From contig JBFLXN010000010.1 of NCBI GenBank assembly GCA_040755715.1, positions 1-27,962 on the forward strand: a stretch of DNA of 27,962 nucleotides. The letters run 5' to 3'. Under the pieces are notes generated by a model. It had not been told where the DNA came from and did no database searches. It saw only the letters and a program-made list of their open reading frames with translations. Source of the stretch: JBFLXN01 sp040755715 [NCBI: Candidatus Edwardsbacteria bacterium]. Its GTDB lineage: Bacteria; Edwardsbacteria; AC1; JBFLXN01. A program made the translations under genes and the position numbers. Every line of letters starts with the position of its first letter. The stretch's first letter is position 1. Of the stretch, positions 10,691 to 18,027 are shown in pieces.

Positions 10691-10724
10691 ATTCCCCCCT
10701 CCCCCCTTTTGTCAAAAGGGGGGG
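10691..10724. repeat. C/G-rich hairpin repeat (CCCCCCTTTT / AAAAGGGGGG)
   Basis: CCCCCCTTTT at 10701-10710 pairs perfectly with AAAAGGGGGG at 10714-10723 around a 3-base loop, preceded by a second C-run (10694-10699). The layout (C-run, then C-rich hairpin) resembles the repeats around the DUF559 gene at 17468-18027, although the arm sequence differs. Confidence 0.6.
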
Positions 10725-17467: not shown

Positions 17468-17549
17468 CCCCTCTTGAGAGGGGGTAAGGGGGTGTGTAAT
17501 CCCCTCTTAAAGAGGGGTGTCCCGACGAAATGTCGGGACGGGGTGTGTA
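17468..17549. repeat. Two tandem G/C-rich repeat units, the second with a nested palindrome
   Basis: Unit 1 (17468-17500): hairpin CCCCTC-TTGA-GAGGGG, then GTAAG, then GGGGTGTGTAAT. Unit 2 (17501-17549): hairpin CCCCTCT-TAA-AGAGGGG, then a palindrome GTCCCGAC/GTCGGGAC (17519-17539) in place of the spacer, then GGGGTGTGTAA. The next base pair of unit 2 is already the start codon of the DUF559 gene. Confidence 0.85.
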
Positions 17550-17918
17550 ATGAAAATTTACTACAATCCGAAATTAAAAGAGCGTGCCCGAGAACTCCGA
17601 AATAATAGCACCTTATCTGAAGTATTGTTGTGGCAACATCTTAAAAACAAACAAATGATGGGTTGTGATTTTCATCGTCAAAAACCAATTGATGAATACA
17701 TTGTAGATTTCTTTTGCCCCAAGTTGGACCTCATTATTGAAATTGATGGCGAAAGTCACAGTGATAGAACTGAAGAAGACAAGAAAAGACAAGCAAGATT
17801 GGAGTCATTAGGTTTTCATTTTTTGCGCTTCTGGGATTCTGAGGTAAACCAAAATATGGAAGGCATTCTTTTAGCTATTGAAGAATGGATTAAGACACAC
17901 CCCTGTATCCCCTCTTGA
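17550..17918 (+). CDS. DUF559 (Vsr-like) endonuclease-domain protein
   Basis: 122 residues, the normal size for this family. The ATG at 17550 is chosen because the open frame extending to a GTG at 17517 is only repeat sequence. The domain is complete: NPKLKERARELRNNSTLSEVLLW with Glu24, DFHRQKP, then YIVDFFCP (Asp53), LIIEIDGESH (Glu64, Asp66, His70), and LRFWDSEV near the end. These are the conserved positions of the PD-(D/E)xK/Vsr-like fold, so it is probably a Mg-dependent DNA endonuclease or nickase; that activity is inferred. Inverted copies of one repeat flank the gene, almost touch its start codon, and supply its last residues and its stop codon (17916-17918, in a hairpin loop). No Shine-Dalgarno is present. 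This suggests a self-contained mobile unit. Confidence 0.85.
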   Translation: MKIYYNPKLKERARELRNNSTLSEVLLWQHLKNKQMMGCDFHRQKPIDEYIVDFFCPKLDLIIEIDGESHSDRTEEDKKRQARLESLGFHFLRFWDSEVNQNMEGILLAIEEWIKTHPCIPS

Positions 17919-17926
17919 TAGAGGGG
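17895..17926. repeat. Inverted G/C-rich repeat unit overlapping the end of the DUF559 gene
   Basis: ACACACCCC, then TGTAT, then hairpin CCCCTCT-TGAT-AGAGGGG (17909-17926). It is the reverse complement of the unit type at 17468-17549, so the GTGTGT ends on both sides point inward to the gene. Confidence 0.85.
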
Positions 17927-17941
17927 ACTGCACCCACAAAT

Positions 17942-18027
17942 CCCCTCTTGAGAGGGGGGGGAAGGGGGTGTGTCATCCCCTCTTGAGAGAATGTAACACA
18001 CCCCTATATCCCCTCTTGATAGAGGGG
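17942..18027. repeat. Gene-less pair of inverted repeat units
   Basis: A direct unit (17942-17976: CCCCTC-TTGA-GAGGGG, long G-run, GGGGGTGTGTCAT), a fragment CCCCTCTTGAGA (17977-17988), then an inverted unit (17996-18027: ACACACCCC, TATAT, CCCCTCT-TGAT-AGAGGGG). The arrangement equals that around the DUF559 gene but without a gene between the arms, as in a MITE. Confidence 0.8.

What the first reader, a model, noticed from the sequence alone, without database searches (positions are those of the whole stretch)
17468..17926. DUF559 nuclease gene fitted exactly between inverted G/C-rich repeats: a candidate one-gene mobile system
Seen: GGGGTGTGTAATG places the ATG directly at the end of the left repeat; the right, inverted repeat (ACACACCCC...CCCCTCTTGATAGAGGGG) encodes the last residues and supplies the stop codon in its hairpin loop. 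The conserved half-sites GTGTGT point inward on both sides. The nuclease keeps the family residues (Glu24, Asp53, Glu64, Asp66, His70). Known: DUF559 proteins belong to the Vsr/PD-(D/E)xK nuclease class and are small stand-alone proteins; RAYT transposases sit between REP hairpins. Inference: the nuclease nicks or cuts the hairpin repeat and mobilises the unit, a RAYT/REP-like system built on a different enzyme class.
Basis: partly seen in the sequence, partly recalled or inferred. Interest (0 to 1): 0.87.

Follow-up and report, generated by a model that had tools for sequence, protein, structure and literature searches.

The report
One-gene nuclease element with triplex-DNA ends
A small bacterial gene for a probable DNA-cutting enzyme sits between short repeats whose sequence would let them fold into triple-stranded DNA; similar packages occur in many bacterial groups and in one family have clearly inserted at new sites, even inside essential genes, which points to an unrecognised kind of mobile DNA and a candidate source for the unexplained BoxC repeats of E. 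coli.

Summary
The repeats and fitted DUF559 gene are real and far beyond chance. Each repeat is a pyrimidine/purine hairpin, a linker and a tail mirroring the purine arm (G to G, A to A/T): the reverse-Hoogsteen code of an intrastrand DNA triplex, as in E. coli BoxC/PIT repeats, whose origin is unexplained (PMC4666352). 291 of 323 such palindromes near DUF559 genes obey it. Such flanks occur at DUF559 genes in 14 phyla by record title; repeat class follows the nuclease tree; genomes with the repeats mostly carry DUF559. Empty sites show near-seamless 470-490 bp insertions holding only DUF559 and repeats. In Flavobacteriaceae a separate lineage sits in frame inside LeuRS, RecG and MetH, with uninserted relatives for the first two; similar inserts occur in PriA and other genes of the cyanobacterial phylum. 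E. coli ycjD ends in a BoxC unit. But 20 of 60 unbiased genes lack nearby repeats, and some repeat-bearing genomes lack DUF559. Best reading: a one-gene mobile element with triplex-forming ends; catalysis at the repeat is inferred, not shown.

The parts
17468..17497 (+). repeat unit E1: hairpin CCCCTCT-TG-AGAGGGG, linker, mirror tail ending GGGGTGTGT
17501..17548 (+). repeat unit E2: hairpin, linker that is itself a hairpin (TGTCCCGACGAAATGTCGGGAC), tail GGGGTGTGT ending 1 nt before the ATG
17550..17918 (+). DUF559 (PF04480) Vsr-like / PD-(D/E)xK-fold nuclease gene, 122 aa; alternative in-frame GTG start at 17517
17895..17926 (-). repeat unit E3, inverted (tail towards the gene); encodes the C-terminus, stop codon TGA in its hairpin loop
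17942..17973 (+). repeat unit E4; forms with E3 an inverted tails-outward pair
   Evidence: (inverted repeat I1)
17996..18027 (-). repeat unit E5, inverted, 9 nt before the ATG (18037) of the next gene (MTHFR C-terminal family)
10691..10723 (-). distant repeat unit of another arm class (CCCCCCTTTT..AAAAGGGGGG, tail GGGGGGAAT) obeying the same mirror rule

Best explanation
A single-gene mobile element. The gene encodes a small Vsr-like (DUF559) nuclease; the ends are repeats whose one strand can fold into a hairpin with its G-rich tail laid back on the purine arm as a reverse-Hoogsteen triplex. Shown here by sequence: the repeat rule, the specific association, the dependence of repeat type on nuclease lineage, near-seamless insertion of units holding only this gene and repeats, and in-frame insertion of a related lineage into essential genes. 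Inferred: the nuclease recognises the folded repeat (probably when single-stranded, as at a replication fork) and cuts beside the tail; host repair then copies or inserts the unit without a long target duplication; solo repeats, BoxC included, are non-autonomous derivatives moved in trans. Insertions are tolerated because the repeat can supply a stop codon in its loop, or can be read through in frame.
For: Mirror rule: of 323 palindromes within 500 bp of a DUF559 gene 280 have a matching tail on one side, 11 on both, 32 on neither; true code 304 near hits against 77 (parallel), 59 (scrambled order), 33 (complement) and 4 (A to C/G); arm-specific tails. Association: 185 elements in 110 kb near DUF559 against 30 in 756 kb elsewhere in the 80 loci plus window; per kb of non-coding DNA 7.86 against 0.59, and 4.34 against 0.68 in the unbiased Flavobacteriaceae set; 40 of 60 unbiased stand-alone genes have elements within 500 bp. 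Nearest elements on both sides point tails inward in 32 of 43, and in 17 of 28 of the unbiased set. Co-occurrence: type A in 15 of 199 Flavobacteriaceae genomes, 13 with a strong DUF559 hit, p 1.4e-5 (at least two copies: 8 of 9); type C in 12 of 146 genomes of the cyanobacterial phylum, 11 with DUF559, p 0.0026. Tail class needs 9 changes on the nuclease tree against 16.9 shuffled (0 of 500 as low) and 12.6 shuffled within phylum (2 of 500). Empty sites. In-gene inserts with uninserted relatives for LeuRS and RecG, forming one side of a branch (98/90) in the Flavobacteriaceae tree. E. coli ycjD ends in a BoxC unit. Fold: 3hrl and I-Bth0305I.
Against: 20 of 60 unbiased stand-alone genes have no element within 500 bp. 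G301 (22 copies), G151 (9) and G181 (1) have repeats but no DUF559 hit. In several genomes counted the pattern hits are, at least in part, the DUF559 gene's own flanks (e.g. G037, G124, G128), which inflates co-occurrence, and species are not independent. Orientation is not uniform, and in-gene inserts have tails outward (14 of 15 with any detected element, 5 of 20 with none), the opposite of most intergenic ones. The Flagellimonas insertion has intact elements only on its right, and the DUF559 frame of the Hanstruepera copy (L032) holds an internal TAA. Tails of two rare arm types fit poorly (2 of 6 and 1 of 4 readings). No target-site duplication was established. No activity was measured; published in vivo DMS footprinting did not detect the BoxC triplex in cells (PMC4666352). 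A DUF559 protein of Caulobacter has been linked to mismatch repair and DNA damage instead (PMC12907096 passages).
Confidence: 0.6

Rival explanations
1. Homing-endonuclease-like: DUF559 makes a double-strand break in alleles that lack the unit and is copied in by homologous recombination; repeats are parts of the recognised site or stabilise the flanks rather than transposon ends.
For: After 3hrl, the best structural match is the homing endonuclease I-Bth0305I catalytic domain (profile E 1.7e-4; Foldseek E 2.3e-4); E24, D66 and D77 invariant and H70 nearly so, compatible with an EDxHD-type site (family name from PMC3943268 passages; the residue equivalence is my inference); recurrence in LeuRS of 13 genomes and RecG of 5.
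Against: Homing needs an allelic target and does not by itself explain members of one clade in LeuRS, RecG and MetH, repeat copy numbers up to 128 per genome, or the mirror-tail rule.
Confidence: 0.22
2. Passenger: repeats are spread by another enzyme (for example a RAYT) and DUF559 is cargo or a defence gene trapped between repeats.
For: Some genomes have repeats without a DUF559 hit; REP elements with RAYT transposases are a known solution (PMC3733652 passages).
Against: The inserted units examined contain no other gene; tail class follows the nuclease phylogeny within phyla; the best defence-library match is a partial similarity to a methyl-directed REase.
Confidence: 0.1
3. Housekeeping repair: DUF559 is a Vsr-like mismatch or structure-specific repair nuclease, and repeats are terminators or fragile sites it protects or trims.
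For: Vsr-related fold; Caulobacter VsrA, with a DUF559 domain, linked to cytosine methylation and the SOS response (PMC12907096 passages).
Against: Patchy presence (89 of 199 Flavobacteriaceae genomes with any hit), empty sites, in-frame insertion in unrelated genes.
Confidence: 0.06
4. Chance or low-complexity artefact of G/C-rich repeats.
For: G-runs favour spurious matches; with the parallel or scrambled code 77 and 59 near hits still appear.
Against: Shuffles give about zero; arm-specific tails; enrichment against non-coding DNA of the same loci.
Confidence: 0.01

Closest known systems
BoxC / PIT / TM-ECO intrastrand triplex repeats (Holder et al. 2015, PMC4666352)
   Same: Hairpin plus third G-rich strand with the class II (purine motif) triplex code; intergenic, multi-copy, some in inverted pairs; a BoxC-type unit lies at the end of E. 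coli ycjD and BoxC-type units flank DUF559 inside PriA of the cyanobacterial phylum.
   Different: The paper reports no associated mobility gene and calls the origin unclear. Here the repeats flank a nuclease gene, end in GT in the window class, allow longer hairpin linkers, and vary in arm sequence with matched tails.
REP elements with RAYT transposases (REPtrons)
   Same: One small gene between inverted hairpin repeats, many copies genome-wide, paired copies, conserved bases at one side of the hairpin.
   Different: No HUH/tyrosine transposase in the unit: the enzyme is a Vsr-like DUF559 nuclease; the repeat has a mirror third strand instead of the GTAG tag (tag as described in PMC3733652 passages).
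EDxHD (Vsr-like) homing endonucleases, I-Bth0305I
   Same: Catalytic-domain fold, gene absent from related alleles, recurrent insertion sites.
   Different: At about 122 aa DUF559 here lacks the extra DNA-binding regions described for I-Bth0305I (PMC3943268 passages), is not in an intron or intein as far as examined, and is flanked by repeats.
Rickettsia palindromic elements (recalled; only a search listing seen)
   Same: Palindromic repeats inserted in frame inside protein genes.
   Different: Here the in-frame insert carries a complete nuclease domain with triplex-type ends.

Membership tests
DUF559 (PF04480) | Match above the Pfam gathering score over the whole domain | tested here: met
   122.8 bits against 20.6, residues 8-113
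DUF559 (PF04480) | Conserved acidic residues and Vsr/PD-(D/E)xK-type fold | tested here: met
   E24, D53, E64, D66, D77 invariant in 25; AF2 pLDDT 89.7; Foldseek top hit 3hrl
Intrastrand triplex (BoxC/PIT, class II) repeats | Pyrimidine arm, purine arm, third strand antiparallel to the purine arm with G to G and A to A/T | tested here: met
   code as in PMC4666352
Intrastrand triplex (BoxC/PIT, class II) repeats | Physical formation of the triplex | not testable with these tools
   shown in vitro for BoxC by CD/NMR in PMC4666352, not for these sequences
REP/RAYT system | Tyrosine HUH transposase | tested here: not met
   the only gene in the units examined is DUF559
REP/RAYT system | GTAG (or CGTC) tag beside the hairpin | tested here: not met
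   the window units, as printed, hold neither GTAG nor CGTC beside the hairpin; their tails end in GT after the mirror part
Homing endonuclease gene | Insertion absent from related alleles | tested here: met
Homing endonuclease gene | Cleavage of the uninserted allele | not testable with these tools
   needs enzyme assay
Insertion sequence | DDE/HUH/serine/tyrosine transposase and target-site duplication | tested here: inconclusive
   no transposase in the units examined; only a 1-nt overlap at L203, L204, L206, and flanks differ by species divergence
Anti-phage defence gene | PADLOC model match | tested here: inconclusive
   partial similarity to mREase_II (E 6.9e-8) and weaker others only

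The most novel reading that the evidence does not exclude
A previously undescribed class of prokaryotic mobile DNA: a one-gene element whose Vsr-like nuclease reads an intramolecular DNA triplex as its end or target signal. It has spread through at least 14 bacterial phyla (by record title), seeds BoxC/PIT-type repeats of E. coli, Cyanobacteria and Bacteroidota in trans, and includes lineages that insert in frame inside essential enzymes (LeuRS, RecG, MetH, PriA) without any splicing, so that an essential protein carries the selfish nuclease as a domain.
Probability: 0.45. Interest if true: 0.95.

Novelty: categorically new. Interest (0 to 1): 0.87.

Why it matters
Intrastrand-triplex repeats have been known in E. 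coli since the 1990s with no agent and no settled function (PMC4666352). Linking them to a nuclease gene gives a candidate mobiliser, including ycjD in a standard laboratory strain, so the question becomes directly testable. It would also be a mobile system in which a DNA triplex is the recognised structure, assign a role to a widespread family of unknown function, and add a selfish element tolerated as a domain inside essential enzymes.

Tried and rejected
Own genome of the window: not held, so copy number and an empty site at the window locus itself could not be tested. E. coli as a clean empty site: strains lacking ycjD carry other genes (a larger operon) next to fabI (PMC12817139 passages), and the BoxC locus ypfG-tkt holds a cluster of other repeats in K-12; neither gives a clean junction. 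In one search, listed ycjD-positive records show more places than ycjD-negative ones, but lineages confound this, ycjD-negative strains still have BoxC copies (e.g. L086), and I give it no weight. The large-ORF DUF559 hits were meant as a negative control; they turned out to be in-frame insertions with their own triplex-type repeats (28 detector hits in 166 kb), so they are not a control. Parallel-duplex reading of the tail rejected: it predicts A opposite every T of the arm, but the all-A code explains 6 of 442 readings against 212 for A/T. Literature, seen as listings only unless said otherwise: all 14 papers naming DUF559 (passages of PMC12907096 read), none about repeats by title; REP with Vsr gave no paper. 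The papers listed (not the whole hit sets) for REPIN/RAYT (20 of 105), triplex with REP (15 of 16), YcjD (10 of 16), intrastrand triplex or BoxC (15 of 4,373), 3HRL or I-Bth0305I (10 of 12), RPE (10 of 66,477) and very-short-patch repair with palindromic repeats or mobile element (12 of 792) showed, by title and start of abstract, none linking DUF559 to repeats. The library lacks most subscription papers and all preprints.

Selections and dropped rows: 80 of 88 related stretches were kept by the tool. The 60 unbiased genes are 60 of 68 stand-alone hits (open frame up to 215 aa, E 1e-20 or better) in the listing; the eight left out are G003's copy (already L021), a second copy lying inside L122, and one each of G018, G019, G045, G058, G155 and G182. 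20 large-ORF Flavobacteriaceae hits and 16 of the cyanobacterial phylum were chosen from longer, truncated lists. 'Strong DUF559' means E 1.5e-14 or better in Flavobacteriaceae (66 of 199 genomes) and 1.9e-19 or better in the cyanobacterial phylum (74 of 146); I set these limits after seeing the lists and typed the handles. One search used 33 of the 38 loci labelled; L025, L043, L044 and L063 (inside the Flavobacteriaceae clade; L044 titled as another phylum, a doubtful bin) and the window were dropped; L004, L013 and L049 carried two tail classes in equal numbers and were given one. 77 of 81 proteins entered the tree, 78 of 80 that.

Full report
Observation. The window holds five units of one repeat between a DUF4175-family gene (ends 17464) and a gene of the methylene-THF reductase C-terminal family (starts 18037). 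Units E1 and E2 read on the + strand left of the DUF559 gene; E3 (-), E4 (+) and E5 (-) lie to the right. E2 ends one base before the ATG; E3 encodes the C-terminus and gives the stop codon in its hairpin loop. The exact 9-mer GGGGTGTGT occurs five times, against a shuffled mean of 0.07.

The repeat rule. Reading related DUF559 loci (80 returned; flanks of 72 printed) showed different repeat sequences with one architecture: a pyrimidine 5' arm, short loop, purine 3' arm, a linker (often 2-8 nt, sometimes longer and itself a hairpin) and a G-rich tail. The tail is the mirror image of the purine arm with G to G and A to A or T, followed in the common classes by GT: AGAGGGG with GGGGTGT, AGGAGGG with GGGAGGT, AAGGGGG with GGGGGTT or GGGGGAT, GGAGGGG with GGGGTGG, AAGGGAG with GAGGGTT, AGGAAGG with GGAAGGT. 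In an arm-by-tail matrix the four commonest arms find their own tail in 0.47-0.49 of readings (the maximum is about 0.5, since each palindrome is read on both strands) and other tails in 0-0.12, except three cells of 0.47-0.50 where one tail pattern lies inside another; rare arms are noisier. Of 323 palindromes within 500 bp of DUF559 genes, 280 have a matching tail on one side, 11 on both, 32 on none; controls with parallel, scrambled, complement or A-to-C/G codes give 77, 59, 33 and 4 near hits against 304. This mirror rule is the reverse-Hoogsteen (purine motif) intrastrand triplex code. The same code defines E. coli BoxC/PIT/TM-ECO, whose triplex was shown in vitro by CD and NMR, though not by DMS in vivo, and for which the authors found no mobility genes and an unclear origin (PMC4666352: abstract, passages, Results parts 1-3 of 4, Discussion part 1 of 2).

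Association. Elements are 42 times denser near DUF559 than elsewhere in the same loci (185 in 110 kb against 30 in 756 kb). Per kb of non-coding DNA the contrast is 7.86 against 0.59; 10 of 304 distant intergenic regions hold one. The 80 loci were found by similarity to the window protein, so I drew a second set from 199 Flavobacteriaceae genomes: 40 of 60 stand-alone genes have elements within 500 bp, 23 of them with at least one tail-inward element on each side, 20 have none; non-coding density 4.34 against 0.68 per kb, and 5 of 93 distant intergenic regions. Where both nearest elements exist they point tails inward in 32 of 43 (80 loci plus window) and 17 of 28 (unbiased set). The stop codon lies inside a downstream inverted element in 33 of 81 loci.

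Repeat type follows the nuclease. Outside Flavobacteriaceae, TTGT-type tails occur with two neighbouring parts of the nuclease tree in Planctomycetota, Nitrospirota, Balneolota, Calditrichota, Myxococcota, Fidelibacterota and Bacteroidota (phyla by record title, mostly MAG bins), whereas other Planctomycetota and Bacteroidota with other nucleases have TGTGT or GATGT tails. Tail class needs 9 changes on the tree; shuffles need 16.9 (0 of 500 as low), shuffles within phylum 12.6 (2 of 500). The window protein is 80% identical to one in a Bacteroidota bin and 74% to one in a Planctomycetota bin, which suggests wide transfer; binning errors are possible.

Co-occurrence. The type A element was found in 15 of 199 Flavobacteriaceae genomes, 13 of them with a strong DUF559 hit, against 53 of 184 without the element (p 1.4e-5; at least two copies: 8 of 9). 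Type C was found in 12 of 146 genomes of the cyanobacterial phylum, 11 with DUF559, against 63 of 134 (p 0.0026). Copy numbers reach 128 (G041) and 125 (G004); the reversed-pattern control gave 0 in every genome listed. Exceptions: G301 (22 copies), G151 (9), G181 (1). The p values are optimistic: species are not independent, and in several genomes the pattern hits are the DUF559 gene's own flanks.

Mobility. At one Flagellimonas locus all 60 genomes searched match the flanks. Among 30 loci held, 13 show separate left and right flanks: 11 join within 0-6 nt, L196 has 65 nt of other sequence and L186 a decayed copy; L021 carries about 488 bp there, with two intact units on its right only. At the Hanstruepera locus three relatives (L203, L204, L206) join the flanks at the same base, where the upstream stop overlaps the next start (TCATGA, read by eye). 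The inserted strain L032 has 470 bp there: unit, DUF559, inverted unit; the hairpin loop TAA gives the upstream gene a stop and the downstream ATG is kept. This copy's DUF559 frame has one internal TAA, so it may be decaying. Only DUF559 and repeats lie in either insert.

In-gene lineage. Large-ORF DUF559 hits, fetched as a control, proved to be domains inserted in frame in LeuRS (13), RecG (5) and MetH (2) (one of each checked with Pfam). Flanking peptides are read from triplex-type repeats; the detector finds a unit in 15 of 20, tails outward in 14. Of 30 LeuRS loci held, besides the query itself 26 lack a DUF559 insert (several have other short inserts), one (L242) has a shorter, decayed-looking one and two gave no two-sided match; of 30 RecG loci, 28 lack it and two (query included) have it. 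The seven best-matching relatives of the LeuRS-inserted G160 lack it, the closest with 94% and 89% flank identity. The in-gene domains form one side of a branch apart from stand-alone ones (98/90), with RecG and MetH as single groups among LeuRS, so the lineage changed target gene. LeuRS host and insert identities correlate weakly (r 0.33, 78 pairs). In the cyanobacterial phylum DUF559 lies inside PriA (L291 by Pfam; L292-L295 by eye), GHMP kinases (L299, with two DUF559 domains and IspE-like by eye; L305), Eco57I- and MmeI-type methylases (L300, L303) and an M14 peptidase (L306), and at the end of a radical SAM protein (L296); PriA inserts are bounded by BoxC-type units, tails outward by eye. 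Uninserted relatives were not compared for MetH or for these genes.

E. coli. ycjD is DUF559. In strain 118UI its 3' end runs into an inverted BoxC-type unit (one stem mismatch, as the published motif allows) with the stop codon in the hairpin loop; in K-12 that unit is shortened, with another BoxC about 165 bp downstream; upstream lies a long inverted repeat without the triplex rule. A paper independently notes that ycjD is 12 nt longer in ST69 and ST182 (PMC12817139 passages). I did not count BoxC or DUF559 across whole E. coli genomes.

Enzyme. The AF2 model (pLDDT 89.7) matches 3hrl (a putative endonuclease-like protein) best and the I-Bth0305I homing endonuclease catalytic domain second, then mitoribosomal proteins, PvuRts1I and Vsr at weaker scores; profile search agrees on the first two (E 1.2e-30 and 1.7e-4). 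YcjD was already placed in PD-(D/E)XK (PMC1189080 passages).

Mechanism. Shown: structure rule, association, near-seamless insertions, gene-to-gene movement within a clade. Inferred: recognition of the folded repeat, cleavage beside the tail, movement of solo repeats in trans, repair-based copying. The opposite tail orientation in intergenic and in-gene units is unexplained; it may mean that the two lineages use the ends differently, or that intergenic copies sit between two solo repeats.

Novelty. Components are known separately; in the searches named under Tried and rejected I saw no report joining them. It fails the tested defining features of REP/RAYT and could not be fully tested as a homing gene, so I file it under no existing mobile-element family; the nuclease itself is an ordinary DUF559 member.

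Noticed in passing
window 10691-10723: A second repeat with different arms obeying the mirror rule, between two other genes of the window.
   Followed up: partly
L067 2608-2988: The Nitrospira-bin DUF559 protein has an in-frame extra peptide (NNPLYPPLVRGN) like the products of these repeats, as if one had inserted in the nuclease gene itself.
   Followed up: no
L237, L241, L243, L251 (LeuRS loop): The LeuRS loop that takes DUF559 carries other short, palindrome-like in-frame inserts in other Flavobacteriaceae, e.g. GTCATTGCGAGCGAAGCGAAGCAATCTC (by eye): perhaps a hot spot for in-frame repeats.
   Followed up: no
L207, L212: At the locus where Hanstruepera has DUF559, two relatives carry instead what looks like a small toxin-antitoxin-like gene pair between the same two genes (judged by eye).
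   Followed up: no
L299 1857-3587: Two DUF559 domains in one GHMP-kinase reading frame.
   Followed up: partly
G301, G151: Genomes with 22 and 9 repeat copies but no DUF559 hit: lost nuclease, incomplete assembly or another mobiliser.
   Followed up: no
L300, L301, L303, L304: DUF559 inserted in Eco57I/MmeI-type restriction-modification proteins of the cyanobacterial phylum with long repeat-derived low-complexity stretches (only L300 and L303 were scanned with Pfam).
   Followed up: partly
H1 (E. coli ETEC6): ycjD locus interrupted by an IS1-like element according to its annotation.
   Followed up: no
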